Origin: Rhizobium tropici CIAT 899
Lineage (GTDB): Bacteria; Pseudomonadota; Alphaproteobacteria; Rhizobiales; Rhizobiaceae
Length of the DNA: 64,000 nucleotides
NCBI RefSeq assembly: GCF_000330885.1
Contig: NC_020062.1
Span: 194,374-258,373, forward strand
Direction: 5' to 3'
The notes below the pieces were generated by a model. The model was not told where the DNA came from and searched no databases. It saw only the letters and a program-made list of their open reading frames with translations. Below are positions 43,882 through 59,776 of the stretch, piece by piece; position 1 is the stretch's first letter; each line of letters begins with the position of its first letter. The position numbers and the translations under genes were made by a program.

Positions 43882-44439
43882 ATGACGAAATCGGTATCGG
43901 AACAGGTCCTGAAAGGCTTGATGCTTCTCTCGCTTGACGGCGATGAGGCTGCGTACAGGCGTTTGCTCGTCATTTTGCGAGATCTGCTTTTGGCATTTTA
44001 TCGGAGGAGACTTGGACCGAATGCAGACCGTGACGCCGAGGATCTGGTCCAGGAGGTGCTTTTGGCGGTGCATAGCCGGCGCATTACCTATGATCGGGAA
44101 CGGCCGTTCACCGCGTGGTTCTTCCAAATCGCGAAATACAAGCTGATCGACCACTTCAGGATAAATGGCAGCAAAAGAGGCGTCGAAATTGCTTTGGGAG
44201 ACGAGATCGCGGCTGAATTTCGAGAGGAAGCACTGTTTGCCCACCTTGACGTCGACCGCCTTCTCGACCGATTGCCTGCCAAACAGAGGGAGCTTCTGCG
44301 GCAGGTAAAGATCGCCGGAAAGAGCACCGCTGAAGCCGCGATCGAGAGCGGGCAGTCTGAAGCAATGGTTCGCGTCAGCATTCACCGAGGGATGCGCGCG
44401 ATTGGACGCAAGCTGGGTTTTGCCAATGACGAAAAATGA
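43882..44439 (+). CDS. ECF RNA polymerase sigma factor (SigF/ECF16-like)
   Basis: The 185-residue protein has sigma region 2 (LAFYRRRLGPNADRDAEDLVQEVLLAVHSRR, WFFQIAKYKLIDHFR) and region 4 (DRLPAKQRELLRQVKIAGKS, SEAMVRVSIHRGMRAIGRKL). No Shine-Dalgarno is visible before the ATG. It overlaps the following NrsF-type gene by 14 bases, the canonical sigma/anti-sigma arrangement of this group. Caulobacter SigF answers dichromate and cadmium stress; the neighbouring molybdoenzyme suggests an oxidative-damage repair regulon. Confidence 0.92.
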   Translation: MTKSVSEQVLKGLMLLSLDGDEAAYRRLLVILRDLLLAFYRRRLGPNADRDAEDLVQEVLLAVHSRRITYDRERPFTAWFFQIAKYKLIDHFRINGSKRGVEIALGDEIAAEFREEALFAHLDVDRLLDRLPAKQRELLRQVKIAGKSTAEAAIESGQSEAMVRVSIHRGMRAIGRKLGFANDEK

Positions 44440-45067
44440 TGAATTCATCGACGCTCTAGTAAGTGATCTCACTCCTGTTCGCCATCATGCGCTGCGAGTG
44501 AGGCTCGCGCTTACAATTATTGTCGGCGTAACCGGCGCGGCTGTTGCGCTGCTGATATCGCTCAGCTTTCGCCCGCATCTGCACCACGTGACGGTGGCGG
44601 CGTTTTCGGTGAAGTTTTTATATACTGCTGTCTTGATGAGCGCGACGATCGTGGCCCTTGACCGGGTTGCGCGCCCCGGGGGGGCGATCAGGAGTATGGT
44701 TCTGGTTCTGGTCGTGGCATTCAGCATCGTCGTGCTTCTGGCCGTCGCTCAACTCACGCTGTCGCCGGCCTCATCCTATCCGGGTTTGATCATTGGATAT
44801 TCGGCGTTCTTTTGCCCGTTCCTGATCGTGGCGTTCGGCATTCCTGCTTTCTGTGCCAACATGTGGTTTCTCAGGCGTGCAGCCCCCACGCGCCCGGCAC
44901 TTGCCGGTTTCGTTGCTGGCGCTTGCGCCGGGGGCGTCGGCGGCTGGGTCTACTCCTGGGCCTGTGTCGAAAACGGCATTCCATTCATCGCGATATGGTA
45001 CACGCTCGGCATCTTGCTGAGCGGGCTGGTCGGAAGCCTGGTCGGCAAATTCAGTCTGCGTTGGTAG
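44426..45067 (+). CDS. NrsF-family anti-sigma factor (DUF1109)
   Basis: The 213-residue protein is an integral membrane protein with six hydrophobic segments after a short cytoplasmic N-terminus (KNDEFIDALVSDLTPVRHHA). The family is known to sequester its ECF partner at the membrane. Two Cys lie in the C-terminal half (GFVAGACAGGVGGWVYSWACVENG), similar to the redox- or metal-sensing Cys of the family. I chose the start at 44426 because the conserved N-terminus begins there. Confidence 0.88.
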   Translation: MTKNDEFIDALVSDLTPVRHHALRVRLALTIIVGVTGAAVALLISLSFRPHLHHVTVAAFSVKFLYTAVLMSATIVALDRVARPGGAIRSMVLVLVVAFSIVVLLAVAQLTLSPASSYPGLIIGYSAFFCPFLIVAFGIPAFCANMWFLRRAAPTRPALAGFVAGACAGGVGGWVYSWACVENGIPFIAIWYTLGILLSGLVGSLVGKFSLRW

Positions 45068-45293: not shown

Positions 45294-46110
45294 GTTAGCG
45301 TTGCCTTAACGGCATTTGCTGATGGAGGTGATATTCGACCGGCATGACCGAAGAACCGTTTACCCGTTACCACCGCCATCGTTTTCCAGCCGAGATTATC
45401 GCCCATGCGGTGTGGCTTTATTACCGGTTTCCGCTGAGCCTTCGCGATCTCGAAGATCTGCTTGCCGAACGCGGGATTGAAGTATCGTTTCAGACAGTGT
45501 CGGAATGGGTGATGAAATTTGGCCTCACGTTCGCTTATCAACTCCGGCAGCGATCACGCGGCAACTTTGTCGACAAATGGCATCTTGATGAACTCGTCGT
45601 GTCGATCAAGGGCAGGAAATACTGGCTGTGGCGTGCCGTCGACGCCGAAGGCTTTATTCTCGATGCGCTTTTACAACGCCGTAGGAACAACAGCGCTGCG
45701 CTGCGGCTGATGCGCAAGCCGCTCGAAAGCCAGGGAGGCATGCCCAGGGTTGATGGTCACCGACAAGCTGCGCTCCCATGCTGCCGCGAAAGCCAGGTTG
45801 ATGCCCGGCGTTGAGCAGCGATCGCACGAGGGGTTGAACAACCGCGCCGAAAATTCTCATCTTCCGCTGCGGCGACGAGAGAGGCGGATGATGCGCTTCA
45901 AATCGGCGCGGCAATGTCAATGTTTCGCCTCGACACAGGGCCAGATCGCCAAGCTCCTTCATCTCCATCGGAAACATCTCACTGCCGCAGATCACCGAAA
46001 GCTTCGCGCCAGCGCCGTCAACACCTGGCGTGAAATCGCATTGTCGACCGTGCTCTGAAATTCGGAACCGCCTGCCTTCCGCGGCCACGATCCGCTAAGG
46101 CGACGCCACC
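45294..46110 (+). mobile_element. IS6-family insertion sequence, copy 1 (817 bp)
   Basis: The ends GTTAGCGTTGCCTTAACGG (45294-45312) and the complement of GGTGGCGTCGCCTTAGCGG (46092-46110) match at 15 of 19 bases. The body encodes an IS6 transposase with a frameshift. An inverted copy with the same length lies at 58960-59776, and the two flank the siderophore locus. No matching 8-base target repeat is seen. Confidence 0.82.
45344..46058 (+). pseudogene. IS6-family transposase with +1 frameshift, copy 1
   Basis: The first frame (45344-45814) covers the DNA-binding part and first catalytic Asp (WHLDELVVSIKG), the second (to 46058) has the other Asp (VTDKLRSHAAAK) and Glu (NRAENSHLPLRRRERR). 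The junction is near 45750 in AGGGTTGATGG, where one T appears to be extra compared with an intact GGGTGATGG. The identical lesion is present in copy 2. Confidence 0.8.
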
Positions 46111-46551
46111 GTTTGTGACTAATCTGAAGACCTTTCTGCTTAGTTTCCCCTCTTGACGCGGTTGAATTGGACGCCGAGCCAATGCGAGAGCTCTCCGAGC
46201 ACCTGCAAATATCTGAACCGTCTGACTGACTAGAAACGGAAGCCGGATCTTCGTCACGAACACGGCCCTCCGCGACAGACATGGGCTCTTTGATTTTGGA
46301 ACGACGCTCGCGTTGATCCAATTCAACATCTTATGCAAATTGTGACCACGTCTCGTCTTAATGGACCTGATGCCATCCCTCGGTCGAACGACTCTGAGGG
46401 GCAATTCTCAGCAAAAATTGCCAAGTAAAATGAAAACCCTTCGTTGACAGAATTGTCATGATCACGTTAAGGGTGCGATATAACATGAGTACATGCATCA
46501 AGTTTTTGGCGCAATTCTAGTGAAATAAGACAACTGAAGGTGGCTAATATC
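46111..46551. other. Leader region of the siderophore operon
   Basis: No gene is seen between the IS6 end and the first siderophore gene. The palindrome-like TGACAGAATTGTCA at 46445-46458 is a candidate operator; it overlaps a TTGACA (46444-46449). No correctly spaced -10 box is obvious, and an iron regulator site cannot be identified with certainty. Confidence 0.45.
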
Positions 46552-46974
46552 ATGAAATTTCATTTTATATCCCCGCATAAGTTGATTCCAACGGAGGAGA
46601 CCGATGCGGGCAGGGTTGATGAAGTTCATGGTCTCATTTCCACGGCCGGCAGCTGGACTGTCCCGATCACGGTGGAGAAGGACGCGCTTTTCGTGATGGA
46701 CGGGCATCACCGTTTGGAAGTGGCGCTCCGGCTTGGGCTGCGTGCTGTTCCAGCCGTTCTCCTCGACTACAGGAGCGTACGCGTCGAGGCCTGGAGGGCC
46801 GGTGAGACGATCACGCCAGCCGACATTTATGACATCGCCCGCAGCCGAAGAAAATTTCCGATCAAAACTACCCGGCACATCTTCTTGGATGATCTCCCGG
46901 CGTGCGATGTGAGCCTCGACGATCTTCGGCAGTGGTATGAGCCTCTCGATCATTCGGAGAGGCTCGCCGGATGA
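46552..46974 (+). CDS. ParB/Srx-fold protein, probable free-serine kinase (SbnI/SerK-like)
   Basis: The 140-residue protein has the ParB/Srx motif VMDGHHRLEVALRLGLRAVP near residue 55 and FPIKTTRHIF near 104. Both blocks occur in SerK, an archaeal free-serine kinase; SbnI of the staphyloferrin B locus is the same fold and makes O-phospho-L-serine for SbnA. It lacks the longer C-terminal part of SbnI, so only the kinase core is present. I chose the ATG at 46552 after GAAGGTGG; a GTG at 46540 would add 4 residues. It overlaps the decarboxylase gene by 4 bases. Confidence 0.72.
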   Translation: MKFHFISPHKLIPTEETDAGRVDEVHGLISTAGSWTVPITVEKDALFVMDGHHRLEVALRLGLRAVPAVLLDYRSVRVEAWRAGETITPADIYDIARSRRKFPIKTTRHIFLDDLPACDVSLDDLRQWYEPLDHSERLAG

Positions 46975-48332
46975 CCGCTCACATCATCCCGATCACGGGG
47001 GCGGAGTTGTCTCCGTTGCTCTCTCCTCTTGCCGCTGACATTTTGACAGCGAGGGCGCCGCTCCTGCACAAATGGATCGAAGAGCACGGGTCTCCGCTTC
47101 ACCTCGTGCTTCCGTCGGAGCTCAAGGCAAATGTCGATGCCCTGCGCCACGTTCTCGACGGTCGGGGAGTTGGACACGCGATCTATTATGGTTCGAAAGT
47201 CAATAAATCCTCCGGCCTGATGCAAGCCGCGCTCAGGGCAGGCTCAGGCATCGACGTGTCGAGCGTTTACGAGCTTCGCGATGCTGTCAAACTTGGGGCT
47301 CAAGGTCACGATATTGTGGCGACCGGTCCCGCAAAAACGGCGCAATTTCACGACGAACTCGTCCGCATCCAGGCTCTTGTCTCCGTGGACAGTCCGGAGG
47401 AGCTGGCCGACATATCGAGCCGGTTGCCGCCAGAGGCCAAGCAACCTGTCCTTTTGCGACTACAGCCGAAAGGTCATGAGAAAAGCCGCTTTGGCATGGC
47501 TGCCGACACGGTGCGAGCATGCCTCTCACGCATCGCTGCCGATAATCGCTTCCGGTTCGACGGCATACATTTCCATTTGGGCGGATATCGCTGGCAGGAT
47601 CGGGCGGTAGCGTTTGAGGAGGCTGTCAGGCTGATCGAGGAGGCCCGGACGATCGGATTTTCTCCGGCAATGATCGATATCGGCGGCGGATTGCCGGTGC
47701 AATATGTGTCCGAGGCGGCATGGGAAGAGTATCTGCAGCGCCAAAGCGCGGACGATTACCGGACGGGCAAAGTTCCGGCTTCCTTTTATCCCTATGGCGG
47801 TCCCCAATCGGCGGCGGCGTGGCTTCGTTGTTTTTTGGGCGCTTTGCTGTCGTCGGGCCAGACGATCGAAGACTATCTGAAACAACACAAGCTAACGCTC
47901 GCGATGGAGCCGGGGCGCTCTCTTGTCGACCAGGCGGCGATTTCAGCTTTCGGCATAACTCGTGTGAAGGATCTTGGAGGCGGAAATGGCGTGATTTTCG
48001 TCGAAGGCAGTAGTTTCAGCGCCTGCGAGACCTGGTTTGCTTCCGAATTCATGATGGATCCCATCCTCATACGCCAGAACAACCAGGCTCCCGCAGGGGA
48101 GGCCTTCCGGGCTTACATCGCCGGTCATAGCTGCCTCGACGAAGACGTCCTGAGCAATCGCTGGCTTAGCTTTCCCCATGCTCCCGAGGCCGGAGACGTT
48201 CTCGTCTGGGCCAATACGGGCGGCTATCAGATGGATCTCCTGGAAAATGAGTTTCATCGGCACCCGATGCCTAAGCGGATGTGCGTAACAAAGAGCGCAG
48301 CCGGCGAACTATCGATCTATCCCGATAACTAG
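46971..48332 (+). CDS. sbnH: PLP-dependent fold-III decarboxylase, SbnH-like
   Basis: The 453-residue protein belongs to the diaminopimelate/ornithine decarboxylase family: PLP-Lys76 in AIYYGSKVNKSSGLM, HFHLGGYRWQDRA, GGGLPVQY and the catalytic Cys block AGHSCLDEDVL. In staphyloferrin B formation SbnH decarboxylates citryl-diaminopropionate to an ethylenediamine unit. A role as decarboxylase of a siderophore intermediate is likely because of its place between the serine-kinase and SbnA genes. Overlap with the previous gene is 4 bases; SbnA follows after 11. Confidence 0.85.
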   Translation: MTAHIIPITGAELSPLLSPLAADILTARAPLLHKWIEEHGSPLHLVLPSELKANVDALRHVLDGRGVGHAIYYGSKVNKSSGLMQAALRAGSGIDVSSVYELRDAVKLGAQGHDIVATGPAKTAQFHDELVRIQALVSVDSPEELADISSRLPPEAKQPVLLRLQPKGHEKSRFGMAADTVRACLSRIAADNRFRFDGIHFHLGGYRWQDRAVAFEEAVRLIEEARTIGFSPAMIDIGGGLPVQYVSEAAWEEYLQRQSADDYRTGKVPASFYPYGGPQSAAAWLRCFLGALLSSGQTIEDYLKQHKLTLAMEPGRSLVDQAAISAFGITRVKDLGGGNGVIFVEGSSFSACETWFASEFMMDPILIRQNNQAPAGEAFRAYIAGHSCLDEDVLSNRWLSFPHAPEAGDVLVWANTGGYQMDLLENEFHRHPMPKRMCVTKSAAGELSIYPDN

Positions 48333-48343
48333 GAGAGAACATC

Positions 48344-49354
48344 ATGCTTCCTACGAATGTGACCCAATTGATTGGGCGCACCCCGGTCATGTCGATCGAG
48401 ATCCCGAGCCTAAATTCCAAACTGGTGCTGAAGATAGAAAAGAACAATCCCGGCGGTTCCATGAAGGACCGCATGGCGCGCAGCATGGTCGTGGCGGCCT
48501 TGCAGGATGGCCGGCTTGCTCCAGGAGGCACGATTGTCGAATCGTCCTCGGGAAACACCGGCATTGGCCTGGCGCTGGCGGCGGTTGAGTTTGGGTTGAA
48601 CTTCATTGCCGTCGTGGATCATCATGCCGCTCCGGACAAGATCCGCATGATGCGGGCGATCGGCGCCGAAATCCGTTATGTCGAGGGAGACTTCAAGGAA
48701 GACGAAGTGGCCGTCGTCGCCAGACAGAGACTGGCAGCACAGCTTGGGGCGCAACTGCCGGGTGCCCTGTTCATGAACCAGTCCGACAACCCTGCCAATC
48801 CCGAAGGTTATGCCGGTTATGTTGATGAACTGATGGAGCAGCTTCCCGACGGCATCGATGCTTTCGTGGGATGCGTCGGCACGGGCGGATCGATGACCGG
48901 CATTTCGCGGCGGCTCAAGCAGCTCTTACCAGCAATCCGCACGATTGCCGTGGAGCCTGCGGGCTCCATCGTGTTCGGACAACCAGGACGTCCCTATTAC
49001 CAGTCCGGAACCGGCACGCCGGCCGGCGACGAAGTCGGCAAGGTCCTTGACTACAGCTGCATTGACGAAGGCGTACAGGTTACCGATCAGCAGGCATTCG
49101 AGACGGCACGTTACATTGCGCGTCGCAAGGCACTGCTCGTTGGCGGTTCGACGGGTGGGGCGATCTACAAGGCTCTCGAATTCATAGCTTCAGGGAAGTT
49201 GCAAGGTACTGTCGTGACGACCGTAGCCGACGGAGGAGAAAAATATCTCGGCTCGGTCTTCGATGACGACTGGATGGCAAAACGCGGCCTGTTCGACCCG
49301 TCCGTCGCCAGCCAGCTCGATGCGTGGCTTTTCGGGCAGGCACGCGCTGCATGA
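48344..49354 (+). CDS. sbnA: SbnA-like 2,3-diaminopropionate biosynthesis protein
   Basis: The 336-residue PLP enzyme of the cysteine-synthase fold has the PLP-Lys41 (NNPGGSMKDRMARSM), the substrate loop ESSSGNTGIGLALAA and the phosphate cup GCVGTGGSMTGISRRL. SbnA joins O-phospho-L-serine and L-glutamate to give an N-substituted glutamate called ACEGA, the precursor of diaminopropionate. The preceding kinase candidate would supply the phosphoserine. It overlaps the next gene by 4 bases (ATGA). Confidence 0.88.
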   Translation: MLPTNVTQLIGRTPVMSIEIPSLNSKLVLKIEKNNPGGSMKDRMARSMVVAALQDGRLAPGGTIVESSSGNTGIGLALAAVEFGLNFIAVVDHHAAPDKIRMMRAIGAEIRYVEGDFKEDEVAVVARQRLAAQLGAQLPGALFMNQSDNPANPEGYAGYVDELMEQLPDGIDAFVGCVGTGGSMTGISRRLKQLLPAIRTIAVEPAGSIVFGQPGRPYYQSGTGTPAGDEVGKVLDYSCIDEGVQVTDQQAFETARYIARRKALLVGGSTGGAIYKALEFIASGKLQGTVVTTVADGGEKYLGSVFDDDWMAKRGLFDPSVASQLDAWLFGQARAA

Positions 49355-50493
49355 AGGTCACGATATGCGGAGCCGGGCGAACCGGCCATCTGAATGCCGT
49401 CCTGTTCAAGCAACAGGACGGCGTGGAAGTGTCCGTTCTGACATCATCGGCCGAGCTCGCCGGGAAATGGTCGAGCGGACGGCAGATCTGGCGGGTGAAT
49501 TTGTCCGATGGCAGCTCTCTGGAGGGAAGGATCGATCATGTCGGTACTGATCCTCGCACGGCGCTTGCCGGAGCGGATCTGGTCGTCGTGACGCAACCTG
49601 CCCAGGCGCGTCCGGCGCTCCTCCGGCAGATCGCCCCTCATCTGCCGGAACATAAGCGCGTCTTCGTCGGGGCCATCCCGGGATTTTGCGGGTTCGACTG
49701 GCTCGCCGAGACTGCATTCGGCGATCGCGGTAATGTTGTCATCTGGGGAATGAAGGACGTCCCCCATACCGCTTACAATCTGATTGCGGGGAGCGAAGTG
49801 CGCATGGGTGGAGCGAAGGCTCAGCTCTATGCAGCACTTCATCGCCGAGAGGCGACAGCCGCGAAAGAAAAGTTATCGGATTTGCTCGGCCGGCTGTACG
49901 AAGCGCCTATCAGCATCCTTGACGACTATCTCGAGATTACGCTTACGCCTGGTAATGCATTGATGCATCCGGCTGTTCTGTACGGGCTGGTCGGTCCCGG
50001 TGCACTATGGGAGAAACGGCCCTTCGATGAGCCGATCTGCTGGTGGAGCGATTGCCCGCGCACCGGTGCTGACATGCTGGAAGCTTGCGATGCCGAAAAT
50101 CAGGCGCTCAAGCACGCAGCCGAAAGGCGGCTCAAGGTCAATCTAGCAAGCGTAAAGCCGCTTCGGCAAGAGTTGATCGAGGCTTATGGCGATCAGATCG
50201 GCGACGACAGCACGATGTATTCGCTGCTGAGAACCAACGAGGCCTACGCCGGCATTCATGCGCCGCTCGTCGCCAACCCGGATGGACCGGGCCTCGTCAT
50301 CGATCGGGAAAGCCGCGCCTTTCATGAAGACATTGCTTTCGGTCAGGCTCTCCTCCTGGAAATGGCCAGGCGGCTGGATGTGCCGGTACCCGCTATCGAA
50401 ACGACCTATCATTGGGCGCGGGCCTATCACGGCAATCTGCCGCAGCCACCTCTGAATTTTGTTCCCGTGACATGGGCCGAGGCAATCGGATGA
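49351..50493 (+). CDS. Octopine/opine dehydrogenase-family protein in the SbnB position
   Basis: The 380-residue protein has the Rossmann motif KVTICGAGRTGHLNAV (GAGRTG at 7-12) and the octopine-dehydrogenase helical domain, with TLTPGNALMHPAVLYGLVG and the tail SRAFHEDIAFGQALLLEMARRL. The usual locus carries SbnB, an ornithine-cyclodeaminase-like enzyme that oxidatively splits ACEGA to diaminopropionate and 2-oxoglutarate. ACEGA is a secondary-amine, opine-like molecule, so an opine dehydrogenase running in the oxidative direction could take this role; this is inference. Alternatively it forms a new opine linkage in the siderophore. It overlaps both neighbours by 4 bases. Confidence 0.83.
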   Translation: MKVTICGAGRTGHLNAVLFKQQDGVEVSVLTSSAELAGKWSSGRQIWRVNLSDGSSLEGRIDHVGTDPRTALAGADLVVVTQPAQARPALLRQIAPHLPEHKRVFVGAIPGFCGFDWLAETAFGDRGNVVIWGMKDVPHTAYNLIAGSEVRMGGAKAQLYAALHRREATAAKEKLSDLLGRLYEAPISILDDYLEITLTPGNALMHPAVLYGLVGPGALWEKRPFDEPICWWSDCPRTGADMLEACDAENQALKHAAERRLKVNLASVKPLRQELIEAYGDQIGDDSTMYSLLRTNEAYAGIHAPLVANPDGPGLVIDRESRAFHEDIAFGQALLLEMARRLDVPVPAIETTYHWARAYHGNLPQPPLNFVPVTWAEAIG

Positions 50494-52370
50494 ATGAAAA
50501 TATCGTGACATCTCGTGCAGGCGGAAGCGATATGCTCGACCCGCAGCTTCACCAGCAGGCAAGACACAACGCTCTGGCGCGCCTCGTGCGATGCCTCCTT
50601 GCCGAACGCATTCTCAATCCCGATGCCCTGTTGTGGTCCGAAGATGGGAGACAGGCATGGCTTCCCTTATGGGCCGCGAGAAAGGTACTCCATTTCGCGG
50701 ACCTGCAGCGCCTGCCGGCCAATACGATGCTGAACCGTGGCGTGATCGACGTCATCGACGACAAGGGCAGGCGTCGACGACTGGATGAACCTGCGGATCT
50801 CATCGCCGAAAGCTCGGCGGACTGGTCGGTCGAACCGGCCTCGGACGGGATCGCTCGCCTGCTTGCCGATATCGACAACAGCATGCAAAACGACGCATTG
50901 ATCCGTCGCCACCGGGAAAACTGGATTGAATCCCTGAGCCGGAAAATAGCTGATGACGGAGACACCGGCCTTATTTCCCATCTTCAGCGCACACACCCTG
51001 TCCATCAGGCGGCCATGCTGCTGGACCAGTGGGGATCCTTGGAAGGACATCCATTTTACCCGACCTGGAAATCGAAGCCCGGCCTCTCGGCGCGGGAGGT
51101 CGAGGCTCTGTCGCCGGAGTTCGGCGCACGCGTCAATCTGCGCATAGCCGCCCTGCGGCAGGACTGGGCCTATGTCGAGATGATGTCCCACGTAGACAGC
51201 TATAACGGCTGGTTCCGCCACAATTATCCGGAGCTTTGGGACGCGTGGGTGAACGCCTTGACAGAAAAGGGGCAAACGCCTGCGGACTGGCTGCCCTTGC
51301 CGATCCATGCCTGGCACCTGGATCATTTTGTCCGCCGTGAATTTGCCGACGAGATCGCTGCCGGTGTGCTTCTGGTCGATGGACCGGAGATTGCCACAAT
51401 CCCATCCATGTCCTTTCGCACGATGTTGCCGGACCTGGAAGAGGCAAGACCATTTATCAAGCTGCCCGTCGCAGTCTGGATGACAAGCGAAATGCGGACT
51501 TTGCAGGCAAAGTCCATTCACATGGGGCCGAGGCTCAGCACCCTAATCTCCGATATTCTCGCTGCGGACGAAGCCATTGGCAGCAACCTGGAGTTTTTCC
51601 GCGAAGAGCTCGGTGCGATCCTCCACCATCCCGAAACAGGCGACGAACATCCTGGCCGTTTCCTTTCGGTCGTCTATCGCGAAGTCGCTGCCATCTCACG
51701 CAAGGACGGCCTGCTGCCTGTCACGGTGGCCGCCTTGTTGGCGGCAAGCCCCGTCGATGGCCGGCCACTGATCTGCGAACTGATCGCGCGCATGGGCAAC
51801 GATCGGCCAGCAGCCGCGGAATTCTTTCGCACCTACGCCGCGGTCGTTCTAGGGCCAACGATCGCCATGTATCTTTTGTATGGCATCGCTTTCGAAGCTC
51901 ACCAGCAGAACAGCACGGTCCTCTTCGATCCGTCAGGGCGCCCGCAGCGTCTGGTCATTCGAGACTTTGGTGATGGCCGGAGCTTCGCTCCCTTGTTCGA
52001 GGCCCGAGGATATCAGCTGAAGCCCTTTAGTCGCGCCGGTATCTTGCCGACCACCTTCAACGACGACATCGCTCTTGTTCGGTCGTTCGTCATCGATGCA
52101 TGTTTCGTTTGCCATCTCCATGAAGTGGCGCTTTGCCTGAACGAACATTTCGGGCTCAGCGAAGCATGGGTGATCCTGCGACAGCAGACCGAAGATGCTT
52201 TTGATCGGGTTCGATCCCGCATGCTGTCGGACGCGTTCTGGCTGGAGGAGCGGGAAGCGTTTCTCAATCGTCCCTGGCCAACACGGTCTGTCTTACGCAT
52301 GCATCTCGAGCGGTATCGCGACTATCGCGTAGAGCACGAACTGCCAAACCCGCTGACAGAGACGCCATGA
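50490..52370 (+). CDS. IucA/IucC-family NIS siderophore synthetase
   Basis: The 626-residue protein has NIS synthetase landmarks: [19 protein letters not shown] (substrate loop), [13 protein letters not shown] (usually HPWQ), [15 protein letters not shown] and [18 protein letters not shown], then FGDGRS. The enzymes adenylate a carboxylate of citrate or a similar acid and form an amide or ester with an amine. Only one synthetase is present, whereas staphyloferrin B needs three, so the product must be smaller or symmetrical. It overlaps both neighbouring genes by 4 bases. Confidence 0.88.
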
Positions 52371-53641
52371 CGGGGACTATCGCGGTTATTCGCGGCTTCG
52401 GGCCGGTCTTTGCTATTCTCTTCGGCCTGCAATTCATCTCCATGGGGGCCATGGAGATGAGCGGCCCGTTCTGGCCACTGCGCATCGAGGAATTGTCGTC
52501 CTCCGGTGGAATTTTCGCGTTGGCCGGAATCGGGGTCTATGTAGGCCCCATGCTCGGCGTGTCTCTGACCAGCTCGCTCTGGGGACGGATGGGTGACCGG
52601 TACGGCAACCGCCTGATGATGGTCAGAGCGCTCGCCGGGCTTGCGATCACCCAGATCCTCGTTTCCTTTGCTCAGGATGTCTGGCTGATCCTGCTCCTGC
52701 GGTTCCTGCAGGGATGTTGCGCCGGCTATATCGCGCCGGCCCAGGCCTATGGCATCCAGATTACAGGCGGCCGTAACCGAGGGGTGCTTCTGACCTGGCT
52801 TCAGGTGGCGACCAATGTCGGTTCGCTCGGCGGTGCTTTTCTGGGCGGCCTCATCCTGGATGCATCCTCCTTCACGACGATCAACCTGGCGGCCGGTTTC
52901 ATCTGCGCCGTCTGTGCCATTGCCGCTTGGGCGATCTTGCCGCGACCGGTGGCGGTGGTGGTGGCGCAGGCGCAGGCGCAGGCGCAGGCGCAGGCGCAGG
53001 CGAGCAGAACTGACCGAGCCCTGGTGCGGCAAGATCATGTCGCCAAAGGGCGTGCCACGGCGCCCGTCTGGAGCCTGTTGACATTGATGGGGATGATGCT
53101 TGCCAGCCGAATGGTCTTGCAGGTGCCTTTTGCGCTGTACATGGTTGAGGTCTTTCGCGCACCTCACTGGGTCACTGGCTTCAGCTATGGCCTCCTAGCG
53201 CTCGGCTTTGTCGTGGCGGCTCCGCTCTGGGCGCAATTTTTCAATGACCGTTCGGCAAGCTTCATCCTTGGTTGGATGATCCTGATTGCTGGTGGATGCG
53301 CATTGCTCACCAGTCTTGCCGGCCTCACTCGCTCCATCGAATATTTCGCCGTGATCTATCTGCTCTGGGGCAGCCTGTTGGGTGGTACGACACCCATTCT
53401 CGTGGCGCTGATTTCCGCAGCGACAGCCGATGGTCGTCAGGGCTCGGTGCTAGGCACTGCCCAGTCCTGGCAGCAGATCGCATCAGTGGCGGGGATAGCC
53501 ATCGGAGCAGGCACTACCCAGATATTCGGACTTGCAAGCGTTTTCCCTCTCGTGTCGCTGCTTTACGCAGTATCCCTTTTTACTGCCGTCGGCCTGTGGT
53601 TGTGTGCACGCCCGCGGCTACCTGTTGGAGATTCCCTGTGA
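52367..53641 (+). CDS. MFS transporter, probable siderophore exporter
   Basis: The 424-residue protein shows 12 hydrophobic segments and MFS loop features ([20 protein letters not shown] between TM2 and TM3). The central loop carries an Ala-Gln run (AQ six times) encoded by six GGCGCA units. The SbnD-like place inside the operon suggests export of the finished siderophore. It overlaps both flanking genes by 4 bases. Confidence 0.87.
52963..52998 (+). repeat. Hexanucleotide tandem repeat (GGCGCA)6
   Basis: Six perfect copies of GGCGCA lie within the MFS gene, encoding alternating Ala-Gln in the loop between the two halves. As a hexamer, copy-number change keeps the reading frame, so it alters only loop length. 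Confidence 0.9.
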
Positions 53642-54798
53642 CCTGCCTTCGCATCCACGCGTTTGCGATAATCCTGTTGCTGACGCCGATCGCCGCGCTC
53701 TCTGCTCGCGCAGAAAATGATGCGGTTCCGCAAACGACGATTACCGTCAAGGATATCGCCGGGCGTGATGTGCAAATTAAGGTACCCGTCGGCAGGATGC
53801 TGCTCGGAGAAGGCAGACAGCTCTATCTGGTCGCATCGCTCGACAGAGAGGATCCGCTGCAGCGGATCGTCGCATGGCGTAACGATCTGATCGAAGCTGA
53901 TCCCGCGACCTACAAGCAATATCTCGACAAATTCCCCGAGCTTGCGAAATTGCCGACCTTCAAGGGAAATGAAGGAAGTCTGATCGATATCGAATCCGCG
54001 ATCGTGAAGAAACCAGACGTGGTTCTCCTCAACCTGGAAGCCAAACAGGCCAATGAAGACGCTCAGTATGTCGAGAAACTCGCATCTCTCGACATACCGG
54101 TCCTCTATATCGATTTCAGGCACAATCCACTTCAGAATACGGACCCGACCATCCGGCTGCTCGGCAAGATCATGGGGCGCGAGGAGCGAGCCGAAGACGT
54201 GATCGCGTTCCGCAAACAGGCCATGGAACGGGTCGAGGACGTGCTTGCCAAGACGAAGCCGGGGCGTCCAAAGGTTTTCATCGAGCGTATCGGCGGATAT
54301 ACGGAGGACTGCTGCCTGTCCTTCGGCGCCGAGAATTTCGGCAAATATGTCGATCTGGCAGGCGGGCACAATATTGGCAGTGATTTTCTGCCTTCGACAT
54401 TCGGGCAGCTCAGTCCCGAACAGGTGGTCGTCTCCAATCCCGATCAGGTCATTGTCACCAGCGCCGATTGGCAAGCCTACGTGCCTGGCGGCCGCTGGAT
54501 TCCTGTTGGCCCAAATGCAGATCTGGATGCCTCGAGGAAGAAGCTCGAGTGGTATACGATGCGGGATGCTTATGCCGGGACAACGGCGCAGACGAAGCGC
54601 AATTTCCATGCCATCTGGCACCAGTTTTACAACAGCCCCTACGAATTTATCGCGGTCCAATGGATTGCAAAATGGCTTCACCCCGATCTCTTCACCGATC
54701 TCGACCCGGACAAGACGTTCGCTGAATATCACAAGCGCTTCCTGCCGATCGCCTATCAACCCGGCTACGCCGTCAGCCTCGATGCCCAAGTACAATGA
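53638..54798 (+). CDS. Fe-siderophore ABC transporter substrate-binding protein
   Basis: The 386-residue protein starts at a GTG that overlaps the MFS stop. It has a signal peptide (about 21 residues, cleavage near SARA-END) and the FhuD/BtuF-type fold: [40 protein letters not shown] and LAGGHNIGS. It should catch the ferri-siderophore in the periplasm. An upstream in-frame region to 53272 is not coding. Next permease gene overlaps by 4 bases. Confidence 0.88.
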
Positions 54799-55862
54799 CT
54801 GAAACCCAGAGAGCCATGGGCCACGGTAATGCGGTCGGCCGCTATCGCCTGGCAAACCTCAGAAAACATCTTGTGCTTTGTCTGCTGCTTGCAGGCGTAG
54901 TCTTTGCGTTTCTCGCCGATATTGCCACCGGTCCAGCCTGGTACGGACTGGACGATGTGTTGAAGACCACGCTGATGCCCGCGGATGCGCAGCCCCAGAT
55001 GCGTGTTGTGATCTGGTCCATTCGGATGCCGTCAGCCCTCATGGCTATTGTCGTCGGAATGGCGTTGGCGACCGCCGGCGTTCAGATGCAGACGGTCCTT
55101 AACAACCCGCTCGCGAGCCCGTTCACTCTTGGAATTTCGTCTGCAGCAAGCTTCGGTGCGGCGCTCGCTCTCGCTTTCGGCCTGTCCTTCATTCCAGTCG
55201 CCGGCGAATATATCGTTGCGGTCAATGCTTTTATCATGGCACTTGGATCTGCCCTCATCATCCATTCAGTGGGATTGCGGCGGGGAAGCTCTGTCCAGAC
55301 GATCGTGTTGCTCGGCATCGCGCTGGTGTTCAGCTTCAATACCGCATTGGCGATGGTTCAGTATTTTGCAAACGATCAGGCTGTTGCCTCCATCGTGTTC
55401 TGGACGATGGGCAGCTTGACCAAGGCAACCTGGCCGAAGCTTGCCGTGACAATCGCCGTCCTGGTTCTCACCATTCCCATCTTCGTCTATCGACGCTGGC
55501 AGTTGACGGCACTTCGGCTCGGAGAGGCTCGCGCGGCATCCTTTGGAGTCCCGGTTCGTCGCCTTCGACTGGAAACGCTCGTGCTCATATCGCTCCTGTC
55601 ATCCATCCCGGTCGCATTTGTCGGAACGATCGGGTTTGTCGGACTTGTGGCGCCACACATTGCGAGGATGCTTGTCGGTGAGGATCAGCGGCACCTGCTT
55701 CCTGCCAGCGCCATGATCGGAGCCTTGATCATGTCTTCCAGTTCCACGATGGCGAAAGTTCTCGTGCCGGGCGCGGTTTTACCGATCGGCGTCATAACCG
55801 CCGTCATAGGCCTGCCGATCTTCTTTTATCTTATCCTGAAGGGAGGGCGGGAAACGTGGTAG
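54795..55862 (+). CDS. FecCD-family iron-siderophore ABC permease
   Basis: The 355-residue membrane protein has the FecCD signatures VVIWSIRMPSALMAIVVGMALATAGVQMQ, PLASPFTLGISSAASFGAALA and GFVGLVAPHIARMLVGEDQRHLLP. About ten membrane segments. One permease gene only; homodimer likely. It overlaps the ATPase gene by 7 bases. Confidence 0.92.
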   Translation: MTETQRAMGHGNAVGRYRLANLRKHLVLCLLLAGVVFAFLADIATGPAWYGLDDVLKTTLMPADAQPQMRVVIWSIRMPSALMAIVVGMALATAGVQMQTVLNNPLASPFTLGISSAASFGAALALAFGLSFIPVAGEYIVAVNAFIMALGSALIIHSVGLRRGSSVQTIVLLGIALVFSFNTALAMVQYFANDQAVASIVFWTMGSLTKATWPKLAVTIAVLVLTIPIFVYRRWQLTALRLGEARAASFGVPVRRLRLETLVLISLLSSIPVAFVGTIGFVGLVAPHIARMLVGEDQRHLLPASAMIGALIMSSSSTMAKVLVPGAVLPIGVITAVIGLPIFFYLILKGGRETW

Positions 55863-56608
55863 TACTCAGCACAAACGCGTTGGGGGCGGTTTACGGCGCA
55901 CGATCTGTCCTCCGCGAGGTATCCTTGCCTCCATGCCACGGAGGAGAAATCATCGCGCTGATCGGAGCCAATGCTGCGGGCAAGTCGACGCTTCTGCGCC
56001 GTATAGCCGGCATTCTTCCGGGCACCGGAGAATGTTGGCTGGCGGGTGTCGACGATCGCGAAACCGCGATCGCTTACATGCCGCAGGATCAGGTGAGCGG
56101 AGCGGCGTTGACCGTCTTCGAAGCCGTGCTTTTGGCGCGCAAGCAGACCAGCGGCTGGAAGCTGGCTGATGCGGATCTCCATGAGGTCGAGCGAGCATTG
56201 GCCGCTTTGCAAATCGCAAATCTCGCGTCGGAATATGTTTCGGAGTTAAGCGGCGGTCAGCGCCAGCTCGTGGCCCTTGCGCAATGCGTTGTCCGCACTC
56301 CGACGGTGCTACTTCTCGACGAGCCGACGAGCGCCCTTGATCTCCATCGTCAATTCGACGTCATGAGGCATGTCAGCTCACTGGCGAAGGAAAAGGGACT
56401 ACTCGTCATCATCGCCGTGCATGACCTGAATCTGGCGATGAAGTTTGCAGACAAGATCGCCATTCTTGCGCATGGAACATTGCATGCTTTCGGCCCAGTC
56501 ACCGAAGTGCTGACGCCCGGAAATCTCGAGGTGGCATTTCGTGTGAAAAGCCGTCTCGAGACATGTTCTCAAGGCAAGCTTCACCTGATCGTCGATGATG
56601 CAGTATGA
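55856..56608 (+). CDS. Iron-siderophore ABC transporter ATP-binding protein
   Basis: The 250-residue ATPase starts at a GTG. It has Walker A GANAAGKSTLLRRIAG, signature LSGGQRQLVALAQCVV, Walker B VLLLDEPTSALDLHRQFD and the H-loop HDLNLAMKFADKI, as in FecE/FhuC. It is the last gene of the operon; a short hairpin follows. Confidence 0.92.
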   Translation: MVVLSTNALGAVYGARSVLREVSLPPCHGGEIIALIGANAAGKSTLLRRIAGILPGTGECWLAGVDDRETAIAYMPQDQVSGAALTVFEAVLLARKQTSGWKLADADLHEVERALAALQIANLASEYVSELSGGQRQLVALAQCVVRTPTVLLLDEPTSALDLHRQFDVMRHVSSLAKEKGLLVIIAVHDLNLAMKFADKIAILAHGTLHAFGPVTEVLTPGNLEVAFRVKSRLETCSQGKLHLIVDDAV

Positions 56609-56622
56609 AGCCTGCCTAGGCT
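56609..56622. terminator. Short hairpin between convergent siderophore genes
   Basis: AGCCT at 56609-56613 and AGGCT at 56618-56622 form a five-base stem with a four-base loop, followed by ATTTTC. It could end both the importer operon and the receptor gene. The stem is weak. Confidence 0.4.
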
Positions 56623-56635
56623 ATTTTCAATCGCC

Positions 56636-58780
56636 TCAGAAGTCCGTGGTCATCGATACCTTGAAAGTTCGCGGCGCACCCTGGGCGATCGTGCTGAAGC
56701 TGGCGACCCCAGACCAATAATCCTTATCGAAGACGTTTTCGACGGAGGCCCGGAATGTGACGGGCCTCTTTTCGATCTCCGTCTTGTAGCGCGCGCCGAG
56801 ATCAAGCCGCGTCCAGGAAGGGATCCTTAGCGTGTTCGTGGTGTTGATATACTGTTCGCCGGTGTGAATGACATTGGCCGTCAGCGTCAGGCCTTCCAGG
56901 AAAGACGCATCCCATTCCGCCCCGATGTTCGCCTGGATCTTTGGCACGCCGACCGGGCGCTTGCCGCGGGTCGCAGCGCTCGAGGTATTCGTCAGTTCAC
57001 CATCCATCAGCATCAAGCCGCCAAGCAAGCGCAAATCGTCCGTGACTTCGCCAAACACGTTGAACTCAACGCCGCGATTGCGCTGTTCCCCGCCGGCGGT
57101 AAAGAGCTGGCCGCCGCCGCTTGGCTCCAACTGGCCGAAGGGCTTCTCGATCTGGAATGCGCTGACAGTCATGGCAATCTGTCCGAGGTCGACTTTGGTA
57201 CCGATCTCGTATTGCGTAGTCTTGTATGGAGCGAGCGTTTGGCCCGCATTGATGGCCGTGGTGGGAGCGGTATCGCCTATGCTCAGACCCTGCGCGTAGT
57301 TGGCATAGAAGGAAACCTCGTCCCAGGGACGGACAACGAGGCCAACGAGGGGCGTGACGGCATCCTCATCCGAAGATGACGACACGGCGCCTGTTGTCGC
57401 ATTGAAGTTCTTCGAGTCGATCTGCTGGAAGCGACCGCCGAGAGTGAGCTGCACGCGCTCGTCGAGCATCGACAAGGTGTCCGACAGGCCGATACCGGAC
57501 AGCCTGGCTTCAGAGACCTTCGGCACTGAACTGGGATTGGCGACGAACTGCTCGATACGACGGACAGGGTCGTACATGTTGCTCAGCTGGGCAGTGCCCG
57601 AAACGATCGCACGATCGAGGCTCTGGTGGAGATAGCTCGCCTGCACGGTCATCATGTGGGAGATCGGCCCAGTGTCAAACTTGGCGCGGATGCCCGTTTC
57701 TGCCGTCAGTCTATCGACGTCGAACACCGCATTCTGTGGCGTAATGCTGACGTCGCCTGCCGGGTTGAGGATGGTTGGCAGGCCAAAAAGGCGGTGCACA
57801 TGGGAATTGCCGCCGCCGACGGCGCCAAACCAGGTGATATCGTCGGTCACATCATATTCGACCCGGCCCAAAACCGAGCGGTCCGTACTCTTCGACCACT
57901 CCCACGGCTCCTGGACATTGAGCGATCCGTCGGGCGCGCTCGGCACAATCAAGCCGGTGGTTTGAAAGAAGGGACGTTGCGGCGCGTCAAAAGTTTCGCG
58001 CTGTCCGATTACGTCGAGTGTGGCTCGAAGATTTTCCCCTTGATAATCAAGAGCCAGGGCTCCGACGTAAAAGTCCCGTGTCTGATCATCAATCGGGGTG
58101 TCGCCACCGTGGACACTGCCGTTAAGACGAATACCGAATTGCCGTTCGTCGCCGAACCGCCGCGACACGTCGACATGAACACCGCCCTGAAAGTCGGAAG
58201 CGTAATCTGTCGTCAGCCGCGTCAGATCCTCATCGAGCGCCCGCTTCGGAACGATGTTGATGGTGCCGCCGACGGCGCTGTTGGGAGAAATTCCGTAAAG
58301 GAAAGCTGTCGGACCCTTTAGCACCTCGACCCGCTCGGCATATTCGGTGAAGACCCGGTACGTAGGGGCGATGCCATAAATCCCATCAAACGCGATTTCG
58401 CCGGCGTTGCCTTCGCCGACCGGAAAGCCTCTGATGTAGAAAGAGTCCAACATCCCCCCGGAGGAGTGGGTATTTCTGACAGACGGATCGTTGTCCATCA
58501 CCTCGCCCACGGTCTGGGCACCCTGGTCCTCGATTTTCTGAGATGTATACCCAGTCACATTAAAAGGGGTCTCCATGAAATCCCGGTTTCCCAGAGCCCC
58601 TAGGCGTGCGCCTTTCGCAACCTGGCCGCCTGCATATTCTTCCGGCAGGGTTCCGATCGTGGACGTGGCGTCTTTCTTCGCGGTAATCACTATTGGTGCC
58701 AATTCGGTGGCACTCTGCCCGTATGCGGCACCGTTTGCCACAGCGCTTATAACGACTGTGCACCCCAACATAAACTTCAT
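56636..58780 (-). CDS. TonB-dependent ferri-siderophore receptor
   Basis: The 714-residue outer-membrane protein has a signal peptide (about 22 residues), a TonB box-like APIVITA, a plug (YTSQKIEDQGAQTVGEVMDNDPSVRN, SFYIRGFPVGEG, VEVLKGPTAFLYG) and a 22-strand barrel ending in the aromatic terminus KVSMTTDF. The ATG at 58780 follows AGGGGA. It is convergent with the siderophore operon and inside the same IS6-bounded segment, so it should import that siderophore. Confidence 0.93.
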   Translation of the reverse strand: MKFMLGCTVVISAVANGAAYGQSATELAPIVITAKKDATSTIGTLPEEYAGGQVAKGARLGALGNRDFMETPFNVTGYTSQKIEDQGAQTVGEVMDNDPSVRNTHSSGGMLDSFYIRGFPVGEGNAGEIAFDGIYGIAPTYRVFTEYAERVEVLKGPTAFLYGISPNSAVGGTINIVPKRALDEDLTRLTTDYASDFQGGVHVDVSRRFGDERQFGIRLNGSVHGGDTPIDDQTRDFYVGALALDYQGENLRATLDVIGQRETFDAPQRPFFQTTGLIVPSAPDGSLNVQEPWEWSKSTDRSVLGRVEYDVTDDITWFGAVGGGNSHVHRLFGLPTILNPAGDVSITPQNAVFDVDRLTAETGIRAKFDTGPISHMMTVQASYLHQSLDRAIVSGTAQLSNMYDPVRRIEQFVANPSSVPKVSEARLSGIGLSDTLSMLDERVQLTLGGRFQQIDSKNFNATTGAVSSSSDEDAVTPLVGLVVRPWDEVSFYANYAQGLSIGDTAPTTAINAGQTLAPYKTTQYEIGTKVDLGQIAMTVSAFQIEKPFGQLEPSGGGQLFTAGGEQRNRGVEFNVFGEVTDDLRLLGGLMLMDGELTNTSSAATRGKRPVGVPKIQANIGAEWDASFLEGLTLTANVIHTGEQYINTTNTLRIPSWTRLDLGARYKTEIEKRPVTFRASVENVFDKDYWSGVASFSTIAQGAPRTFKVSMTTDF

Positions 58781-58852
58781 GTAAAAATCCCCTAACCAGT
58801 CATCGCCTGATCTCGTAAGCCGCGACCATCGGCACAAAACCGCTAAATAACA

Positions 58853-58867
58853 TGATAAAAGATGTCA
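58853..58867 (-). promoter_or_regulatory. TGA-N9-TCA site overlapping a -35 box, possible RirA iron box
   Basis: TGATAAAAGATGTCA has the TGA-N9-TCA form of the IRO motif reported for rhizobial RirA. On the minus strand it overlaps TTGACA (58868-58863), the putative -35 box of the receptor gene, 83 bases from its ATG. Repression in iron sufficiency would follow; no experimental support. Confidence 0.5.
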
Positions 58868-58959
58868 AGTTTTAATGGGATGCATATGTCCTTGAAGCCA
58901 CAGAACAATCATCGTCTTGAGGGGTGGTGAGGCCGGACTAGGTTTTCCTTATGCACAAA

Positions 58960-59776
58960 GGTGGCGTCGCCTTAGCGGATCGTGGCCGCGGAAGGCAGGC
59001 GGTTCCGAATTTCAGAGCACGGTCGACAATGCGATTTCACGCCAGGTGTTGACGGCGCTGGCGCGAAGCTTTCGGCGGTCTGCGGCAGTGAGATGTTTCC
59101 GATGGAGATGAAGGAGGTTGGCGATCTGGCCCTGTGTCGAGGCGAAACCTTGACATTGCCGCGCCGATTTGAAGCGCATCATCCGCCTTCTCGTCGCCGC
59201 AGCGGAAGATGAGAATTTTCGGCGCGGTTGTTCAACCCCTCGTGCGATCGATGCTCAACGCCGGGCATCAACCTGGCTTTCGCGGCAGCATGGGAGCGCA
59301 GCTTGTCGGTGACCATCAACCCTGGGCATGCCTCCCTGGCTTTCGAGCGGCTTGCGCATCAGCCGCAGCGCAGCGCTGTTGTTCCTACGGCGTTGTAAAA
59401 GCGCATCGAGAATAAAGCCTTCGGCGTCGACGGCACGCCACAGCCAGTATTTCCTGCCCTTGATCGACACGACGAGTTCATCAAGATGCCATTTGTCGAC
59501 AAAGTTGCCGCGTGATCGCTGCCGGAGTTGATAAGCGAACGTGAGGCCAAATTTCATCACCCATTCCGACACTGTCTGAAACGATACTTCAATCCCGCGT
59601 TCGGCAAGCAGATCTTCGAGATCACGAAGGCTCAGCGGAAACCGGTAATAAAGCCACACCGCATGGGCGATAATCTCGGCTGGAAAACGATGGCGTCTGA
59701 AGGGAGCAGGAGAGATTTCGGTCTTTGCCACCAAATACCAACCCGCTCCCGACAGACTCGTTAACCCGACGCTAAC
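58960..59776 (-). mobile_element. IS6-family insertion sequence, copy 2, inverted (817 bp)
   Basis: The end GGTGGCGTCGCCTTAGCGG (58960-58978) is identical to the outer end of copy 1. The body to about 59695 is nearly identical to copy 1, but the last roughly 80 bases before 59776 differ strongly while retaining GTTAGCGT and TTAACG blocks. It lies opposite in direction to copy 1. Confidence 0.8.
59012..59731 (-). pseudogene. IS6-family transposase with frameshift, copy 2
   Basis: Same product as copy 1 from RHRFPAEIIAHAVWLYYRF onwards, with the same one-base lesion at the GMPRV position and the same second-frame ending. The N-terminus differs (AKTEISPAPF in place of TEEPFTRYH), and the start may be GTG at 59731. 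Probably non-functional unless frameshifting occurs. Confidence 0.78.

What the first reader, a model, noticed from the sequence alone, without database searches (positions are those of the whole stretch)
49351..50493. Opine dehydrogenase in the SbnB place: a possible new route to diaminopropionate or an opine-type siderophore
SbnA makes ACEGA, and SbnB (ornithine-cyclodeaminase fold) splits it oxidatively. Here SbnB is missing and an octopine-dehydrogenase-family gene is translationally coupled behind sbnA. ACEGA is itself a secondary-amine opine, and the SbnB reaction is formally an opine dehydrogenase reaction in reverse. Non-homologous replacement is therefore chemically sensible. An alternative is that it makes a carboxyalkyl-amine bond in the final product, as in rhizobactin, which contains ethylenediamine and a carboxyethylamino group.
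Basis: partly seen in the sequence, partly recalled or inferred. Interest (0 to 1): 0.8.

Follow-up and report, generated by a model that had tools for sequence, protein, structure and literature searches.

The report
Probable genes for the siderophore rhizobactin
This gene set probably builds rhizobactin, an iron-gathering molecule described in soil bacteria in the 1980s, with the odd dehydrogenase adding its alanine-like arm; related gene sets sit in other bacteria where their product was not known.

Summary
In detail: an octopine-dehydrogenase-family gene (49351-50493) overlaps an sbnA-like gene by ATGA in a nine-gene siderophore run with a receptor gene beside it, and no SbnB-family protein passes the cut-off in the genome. 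The headline idea, replacement of SbnB, is not supported. The alternative, an opine-type siderophore like rhizobactin, is strongly supported. The same core genes lie in Pseudomonas sp. FEN, a chemically proven producer of rhizobactin and rhizobactin B, and hold that draft genome's only IucA/IucC synthetase and only octopine-dehydrogenase-family gene. FEN's locus adds a gene of the citramalyl-CoA-lyase kind that rhizobial loci lack, fitting citramalate in rhizobactin B and malate in rhizobactin. Proposed route: O-phosphoserine is joined to lysine, decarboxylated to an aminoethyl arm, reductively joined to pyruvate by the dehydrogenase, and acylated with malate. FEN's authors pointed to rhizobactin 1021 homologues instead. 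The cluster type equals the proteobactin (pbt) locus and the enigmatic y4yB-y4xM genes in the NGR234 type III locus. Every reaction is inferred; nothing was assayed or knocked out.

The parts
46486..46500 (+). TGA-N9-TCA, an IRO (RirA)-type iron box 54 bp before the serK-like GTG start
   Evidence: the motif lies at -41 to -55 from the same gene in 22 of 34 alphaproteobacterial loci examined, background 0.034 per 132-bp window. Motif and its meaning recalled.
46540..46974 (+). SerK/SbnI-like protein, proposed serine kinase giving O-phosphoserine; by position y4yB
   Evidence: NCBIfam SerK 39 bits, E 4e-10, below its cut-off of 380; no Pfam match; a relative in 75 of 80 loci
46971..48332 (+). 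PLP decarboxylase of the diaminopimelate/ornithine kind in the place of SbnH; counterpart annotated 'Y4yA family' in L092 and L093
   Evidence: Pfam Orn_Arg_deC_N 90 bits; 80 of 80 loci
48344..49354 (+). SbnA-like PLP beta-replacement enzyme; counterpart of y4xP
   Evidence: Pfam PALP 228 bits; SbnA model 239 bits, under cut-off; 80 of 80 loci
49351..50493 (+). octopine-dehydrogenase-family opine dehydrogenase (the finding); counterpart of y4xO
   Evidence: PF02317 93 bits; 3c7a; H206, R322, E326, D327 invariant in 84 sequences
50490..52370 (+). IucA/IucC NIS synthetase, the only one found in the genome; counterpart of y4xN
   Evidence: PF04183 163 bits, PF06276 116 bits; 1 match in the genome; ATGA start
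52367..53641 (+). MFS transporter, proposed exporter; counterpart of y4xM
   Evidence: MFS_1 133 bits; nearest NCBIfam model FslB, rhizoferrin exporter, 127 bits, under its cut-off of 600
53638..54798 (+). periplasmic siderophore-binding protein
   Evidence: Peripla_BP_2 50 bits; GTGA overlap with the MFS gene
54795..55862 (+). FecCD-type permease
   Evidence: 272 bits
55856..56608 (+). ABC ATPase
   Evidence: 86 bits
56636..58837 (-). TonB-dependent siderophore receptor (start codon not fixed)
   Evidence: TIGR01783 375 bits, over its cut-off of 223.5; a TGA-N9-TCA at 58853-58867 upstream

Best explanation
The locus 46540-58837 makes, exports and takes up a rhizobactin-type siderophore, and the opine dehydrogenase makes its N-(1-carboxyethyl) (alanine) arm. 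Proposed steps: (1) the SerK-like protein phosphorylates L-serine; (2) the SbnA-like enzyme replaces the phosphate by the alpha-amine of L-lysine, giving N2-(2-amino-2-carboxyethyl)lysine; (3) the decarboxylase removes the serine-derived carboxyl, leaving N2-(2-aminoethyl)lysine; (4) the dehydrogenase reductively condenses that primary amine with pyruvate; (5) the single NIS synthetase puts malate (in the Pseudomonas form, mostly citramalate) on lysine N6. The MFS protein exports; receptor, binding protein and permease re-import. Shown: gene content, conservation, the sole NIS and sole octopine-dehydrogenase-family gene of a proven producer, the correlation of a citramalate-type gene. Inferred: every reaction, their order, and that this Rhizobium makes the malate form.
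For: Pseudomonas sp. FEN was shown by mass spectrometry (both) and NMR (rhizobactin B) to make rhizobactin and rhizobactin B (PMC7676072, passages and section 25 seen). Its genome carries this cluster (L083, 51% identical dehydrogenase; core genes); the IucA/IucC gene there is the only one found in that genome and the dehydrogenase the only PF02317. The paper gives the parts of rhizobactin as ethylenediamine, alanine, lysine and malate, with citramalate for malate in rhizobactin B; an enzyme of the cluster can be put to each bond. FEN's locus has an extra CitE-type gene (L083:6008-6913; best NCBIfam model RipC, itaconate-degradation C-C lyase, 161 bits, below its cut-off of 375); [quoted passage not shown] It is in 21 of 21 Pseudomonas, 4 of 4 Pectobacterium and 1 Bosea locus and was not found in the other 54 of 80; in the NIS tree 26 of the 28 rows on one side have it and 0 of 55 on the other. 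Rhizobactin was first found in S. meliloti DM4; S. meliloti AK83 carries the cluster, without that gene, on a plasmid. The dehydrogenase keeps His, Arg and Asp aligned with octopine dehydrogenase H212, R324, D329 (roles recalled).
Against: No knock-out, assay or mass spectrum of this strain. DM4 itself was not examined. FEN is a draft genome, and an amide could be made by an enzyme outside IucA/IucC. FEN also makes the malate form although it has the citramalate-type gene. In the cited lyases, forming citramalyl-CoA is unfavourable and needed excess pyruvate. Absence of the CitE-type gene was judged only in the DNA held (up to 10 kb each side, some loci cut) and is confounded with taxonomy except for Bosea; L079 (Cupriavidus) and L043 (Methylobacterium) lack it but fall on the side that has it, and that split has support of only 89-94 with long branches warned of. 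A counterpart, Y4xP, was published as a cysteine synthase (title and review passage seen; paper not read). The iron box is a short motif (28 in the 64 kb window). A Fur-box scan beat its shuffled maximum in only 3 of 21 Pseudomonas loci, FEN among them. Lysine rather than alanine as nucleophile is an assumption.
Confidence: 0.84

Rival explanations
1. The dehydrogenase replaces SbnB: it oxidatively splits ACEGA to give 2,3-diaminopropionate, which is then decarboxylated and acylated.
For: SbnA-like and SbnH-like genes present, SbnB absent; SbnB and this set never shared a genome in 398.
Against: A product of this chemistry would not contain the alanine and lysine arms found in FEN; SbnA-like protein below the SbnA cut-off with Ser at the presumed Tyr152; one NIS synthetase where staphyloferrin B uses three (recalled).
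Confidence: 0.05
2. Same opine-NIS chemistry, different building blocks: the cluster in Rhizobium makes an analogue with ornithine, another keto acid or citrate, so it is rhizobactin-like rather than rhizobactin.
For: Window NIS and FEN NIS lie in distinct parts of the tree; window dehydrogenase is only 51% identical to FEN's; the NIS is nearest to the NCBIfam model of the rhizoferrin enzyme FslA, though far below its cut-off (279 of 1000 bits).
Against: Rhizobactin itself was isolated from S. meliloti, and an S. meliloti plasmid carries the nearer, rhizobial form.
Confidence: 0.25
3. Reversed assembly: the SbnA-like enzyme joins phosphoserine to alanine, and the dehydrogenase adds the lysine skeleton as 6-amino-2-oxohexanoate.
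For: Gives the same constitution; not excluded by gene content.
Against: Octopine dehydrogenase and its kin use pyruvate, and free 6-amino-2-oxohexanoate cyclises (both recalled).
Confidence: 0.1
4. The FEN siderophores come from rhizobactin 1021 (rhb) genes, as the FEN authors suggested, and this cluster makes something else.
For: FEN authors report rhbA/rhbB homologues.
Against: Rhizobactin 1021 needs two NIS synthetases (recalled) and is a hydroxamate; FEN has a single IucA/IucC match and it lies in this cluster. The homologues they name were not located here.
Confidence: 0.05

Closest known systems
proteobactin (pbtA-I) locus of Proteus mirabilis
   Same: Same gene kinds: NIS synthetase, receptor, decarboxylase, PLP enzyme, 'octopine/opine/tauropine dehydrogenase', MFS, binding protein, hypothetical protein, citrate-lyase-beta-like gene (PMC11026637 section 27; matches in a P. 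mirabilis record, L091). Reported there as iron-repressed, and as needed together with nrp for chelation.
   Different: No full structure in the passages I read, only 'hydroxy carboxylate'; the review reads the citrate-lyase-like gene as an oxaloacetate source, I read it as a citramalate (or malate) source. The window lacks that gene.
y4yB-y4yA-y4xP-y4xO-y4xN-y4xM of Sinorhizobium fredii pNGR234a
   Same: Six matching genes in the same order (L093).
   Different: Sits between nopX and nopL in the type III secretion locus, induced 53- to 83-fold by apigenin (PMC10970691 table), no iron box in the 120 bp before its first gene and no import genes beside it; called enigmatic (PMC3973906 passage).
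rhizobactin / rhizobactin B (S. meliloti DM4; Pseudomonas sp. FEN)
   Same: An enzyme here for each moiety; FEN carries the cluster.
   Different: I found no paper tying this cluster to it (searches listed under Tried and rejected); FEN authors cite rhizobactin 1021 homologues.
staphyloferrin B (sbn) cluster
   Same: SbnA-, SbnH- and SbnI-like proteins and an NIS synthetase (sbn layout recalled).
   Different: No SbnB, SbnA-like below family cut-off, one NIS enzyme, plus an opine dehydrogenase.
staphylopine/pseudopaline (CntKLM) opine metallophores
   Same: Opine dehydrogenase forms a carbon-nitrogen bond of the metallophore (recalled).
   Different: Different dehydrogenase family and no NIS enzyme (recalled, not tested).

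Membership tests
Octopine/opine dehydrogenase family (PF02317) | HMM score over curated cut-off | tested here: met
   93.2 bits, cut-off 30
Octopine/opine dehydrogenase family (PF02317) | His, Arg, Asp aligned with octopine dehydrogenase H212, R324, D329 | tested here: met
   H206, R322, D327; invariant in 84 of 84 sequences; roles recalled
Octopine/opine dehydrogenase family (PF02317) | NAD(P)H-dependent condensation of an amine with a 2-oxo acid | not testable with these tools
   needs assay
SbnA/SbnB diaminopropionate pathway | SbnA over family cut-off | tested here: not met
   239.3 bits, cut-off 349.95
SbnA/SbnB diaminopropionate pathway | SbnB-family protein in the genome | tested here: not met
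   best 132.5 bits, cut-off 326.9; none in 83 related loci
SbnA/SbnB diaminopropionate pathway | Tyr152 of SbnA | tested here: inconclusive
   Ser147 in at least 97% of 84 dehydrogenase-cluster rows, Tyr in 2 of 2 SbnB-linked SbnAs; S. aureus SbnA itself was not in the alignment, so the match to Tyr152 (PMC12414870) is inferred from the NQY motif
Rhizobactin biosynthesis | Cluster present in a proven producer and holding its only NIS synthetase | tested here: met
   Pseudomonas sp. FEN
Rhizobactin biosynthesis | Cluster present in the original producer S. meliloti DM4 | not tested
   DM4 was not searched; S. meliloti AK83 has it
Rhizobactin biosynthesis | Loss of rhizobactin on gene deletion | not testable with these tools
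   needs experiment
Proteobactin/Y4x cluster type | Same core genes | tested here: met
   L091 and L093
Rhizobactin 1021 (rhb) cluster | Two NIS synthetases (recalled) | tested here: not met
   one IucA/IucC match in the window's genome and one in FEN

The most novel reading that the evidence does not exclude
One widespread hybrid pathway, joining SbnA-type beta-replacement, opine dehydrogenase chemistry and an NIS synthetase, makes rhizobactin, rhizobactin B and proteobactin, with a CitE-type enzyme setting malate against citramalate. Some sinorhizobia carry two copies: one under iron control, and one moved into the type III secretion locus, without import genes and iron box and switched on by plant flavonoids, so that the host's signal rather than iron starvation triggers release of the metallophore during infection. 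Against the symbiosis part: y4yA, y4yB and y4xP mutants of USDA257 are listed as without nodulation effect (PMC4881576 table), though a USDA191 y4xP mutant nodulated one soybean better.
Probability: 0.5. Interest if true: 0.82.

Novelty: new variant of a known kind. Interest (0 to 1): 0.72.

Why it matters
It would give genes to a siderophore structure known since the 1980s, correct the gene assignment suggested for Pseudomonas sp. FEN, predict a structure for proteobactin, and offer a function for y4yB-y4xM, long unexplained in a rhizobial type III secretion locus. It defines an opine-plus-NIS siderophore logic that genome-mining rules could use directly.

Tried and rejected
SbnB replacement: rejected as leading reading. 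Rhizobactin 1021 genes as source in FEN: rejected. Fur box in Pseudomonas loci: best site exceeded the maximum of 50 shuffles in 3 of 21 loci (L083, L065, L074; shuffles scored on one strand), so inconclusive. The first iron-box count (16 loci, positions taken from the stop-to-stop frame) was replaced, which places the gene start by alignment. One search took 34 loci (L009-L040, L071, L092); six further alphaproteobacterial loci (L041, L043, L049, L050, L052, L087) were not examined. Its 12 misses: seven Bradyrhizobium, two Leisingera, L020, and the type III-embedded L027 and L029. The first search for SbnB-like frames in the loci used a wrong-strand frame as one of six queries; it was redone correctly with two true SbnB proteins added, with the same result.

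Paper searches that showed no rhizobactin gene cluster of this kind: 2 papers; 20 of 21 listed; 10; 40 of 97 listed; 20 of 93 listed; 20 of 42 listed; 2; also 23 (proteobactin, 24 of 25 listed) and 28 (y4x names, 7). Open-access library only; the subscription or unheld papers (Himpsl 2010; Lorio 2006; the original rhizobactin papers) were not read, so prior assignment there is not excluded.

Limits of counts: one search kept the best 80 of 93 relatives, found through six exact peptide patterns, so it leans to near relatives; one search found 45 plasmid records, 40 listed, 3 opened. Only 2 SbnB-linked SbnAs could be compared. L059 dropped out of the NIS tree because its gene is cut by the contig end (83 rows). 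Genome draws used E limits of 1e-80 (SbnB), 1e-60 (dehydrogenase) and 1e-65 or 1e-90 (SbnA-like).
Full report
What is there. The window lies in a 6.69 Mb genome in four contigs; its nearest relatives by this cluster are Rhizobium (R. vallis, 92% identical dehydrogenase). From 46540 to 58837 there is one siderophore locus: on the + strand a SerK/SbnI-like protein, a PLP decarboxylase, an SbnA-like PLP enzyme, the octopine-dehydrogenase-family gene, one IucA/IucC (NIS) synthetase, an MFS transporter, a binding protein, a permease and an ATPase, and on the - strand a TonB-dependent receptor.

Is SbnB missing? Yes by the curated model: seven weak matches in the genome, none over cut-off, and no SbnB or ornithine-cyclodeaminase-type frame in any of 83 related loci, with both positive controls found. 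But the gene called sbnA is not in the curated SbnA family either: 239 bits against 349.95. In an alignment with two SbnA proteins that do sit next to SbnB (L096, L097), the dehydrogenase-linked proteins have Ser147 where both have Tyr. I take this Tyr to be Tyr152 of S. aureus SbnA, one of three residues named as key for selective O-phosphoserine binding (PMC12414870, passages); S. aureus SbnA itself was not aligned. The SbnA-like enzyme is therefore a distinct subfamily, and nothing says that it uses glutamate.

How firm is the association? Of 80 genome loci with a relative of the dehydrogenase, 80 have the SbnA-like, decarboxylase and NIS genes (one NIS cut by its contig end, one split), 79 the MFS gene and 75 the SerK-like gene; 72 have the order decarboxylase, SbnA-like, dehydrogenase, NIS, MFS. 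In an even draw of 398 genomes of the phylum the dehydrogenase is in 3 and the SbnA-like gene in the same 3, adjacent in each; SbnB over cut-off is in 2 other genomes. In 297 genomes of the order both are in the same 3, adjacent in each (two of these three, the window's own among them, were also in the phylum draw).

The key link. One of the 80 loci, L083, is Pseudomonas sp. FEN. That strain was shown to make rhizobactin (mass spectrometry) and rhizobactin B (mass spectrometry and NMR) (PMC7676072; passages and the genome section read). The paper gives the parts of rhizobactin as ethylenediamine, alanine, lysine and malic acid, and suggests citramalic acid in place of malic acid in rhizobactin B. 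Its authors pointed to two homologues of rhizobactin 1021 genes. In the FEN draft genome one IucA/IucC gene was found, and it lies in L083, and one octopine-dehydrogenase-family gene, also there. Rhizobactin 1021 assembly needs two NIS enzymes (recalled), so that route looks unavailable in FEN.

A second fit. FEN's locus has, beside the SerK-like gene, a gene of the CitE/citrate-lyase-beta kind (HpcH_HpaI, 111 bits) whose best NCBIfam model is RipC, an itaconate-degradation C-C lyase, at 161 bits but under its cut-off of 375; the lyase step of that pathway acts on citramalyl-CoA (PMC12290011 abstract in the listing). [quoted passage not shown] The gene is in 21 of 21 Pseudomonas, 4 of 4 Pectobacterium and one Bosea locus, and was not found in the other 54 of the 80. 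In a tree of 83 NIS synthetases, 26 of 28 rows on one side have it and 0 of 55 on the other, two changes against about 22 for shuffled labels; the alphaproteobacterium Bosea lies with Pseudomonas, while Cupriavidus L079 and Methylobacterium L043 lie on that side without the gene; support at the split is 89-94, not starred. Rhizobial loci lack it, as expected if they use malate, the acid of rhizobactin from S. meliloti DM4. S. meliloti AK83 carries the cluster on plasmid pSINME01. Caution: absence was judged within the DNA held, some loci are cut, taxonomy confounds most of the pattern, and betaproteobacterial loci also lack the gene.

Mechanism. Serine, activated as O-phosphoserine, would give the ethylene bridge and one nitrogen through the SbnA-like enzyme and the decarboxylase; the dehydrogenase would add pyruvate to the freed amine, an opine reaction; the NIS enzyme would close the amide on lysine N6. 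The dehydrogenase keeps residues aligned with H212, R324 and D329 of octopine dehydrogenase (roles recalled), invariant in 84 sequences, and its model is confident. All reactions are inferred.

Regulation. A TGA-N9-TCA box of the RirA/IRO type (motif recalled) lies at 46486-46500. The same motif lies 41-55 bp before the SerK-like gene in 22 of 34 alphaproteobacterial loci examined, against 0.034 expected per window of that size. The 12 misses are seven Bradyrhizobium, two Leisingera, one Rhizobium (L020), and L027 and L029.

Known relatives. The cluster matches the proteobactin (pbt) locus of Proteus mirabilis (gene list in PMC11026637 section 27; a P. mirabilis region with these genes, L091), described as iron-repressed, with an octopine/opine dehydrogenase and a citrate-lyase-beta-like gene; no full structure in what I read. 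It also matches y4yB-y4yA-y4xP-y4xO-y4xN-y4xM of pNGR234a (L093), between nopX and nopL, whose role a review calls enigmatic (PMC3973906) and which apigenin induces 53- to 83-fold (PMC10970691 table; a second copy on pNGR234b is noted there and was seen). L027 and L029 are that same arrangement (98.6% identical to L093 over about 14.8 kb). L093, L027 and L029 lack the iron box, whereas L024, from the same strain as L029, has it. Thus one copy appears to follow iron and the other a plant signal. Published mutants speak against a large symbiotic role: none seen for y4yA, y4yB, y4xP in USDA257, one enhanced nodulation in USDA191.

Verdict. The cluster type is in print; its assignment to rhizobactin, the reading of the CitE-type gene and the two-copy contrast were not found in the papers searched (open-access only, lists capped).

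Noticed in passing
window 45374-46113 and 58957-59695: Inverted, 98-100% matching copies of an IS6/IS240-type transposase fragment flank the whole siderophore locus, like a composite element with about 12.8 kb between them.
   Followed up: partly
L093 6192-13237; L027; L029: The copy embedded in the S. fredii-type III secretion locus lacks the iron box and the import genes seen beside many free-standing copies.
   Followed up: partly
L027 and L029, decarboxylase gene: The decarboxylase match is split over two frames in these type III-embedded copies, in one frame in L093; broken gene or assembly error not decided.
   Followed up: no
L083:15105-17071: FEN has an ECF sigma factor and FecR-like pair just before the receptor gene, so uptake there may be surface-signalled.
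   Followed up: no
window 43882-45067: By eye, an ECF sigma factor followed by a membrane protein that could be its anti-sigma factor; no family search run.
   Followed up: no
L088: In Pectobacterium sp. PL152 the NIS match falls into two and the receptor match into five frames, suggesting a decayed or badly assembled copy.
   Followed up: no
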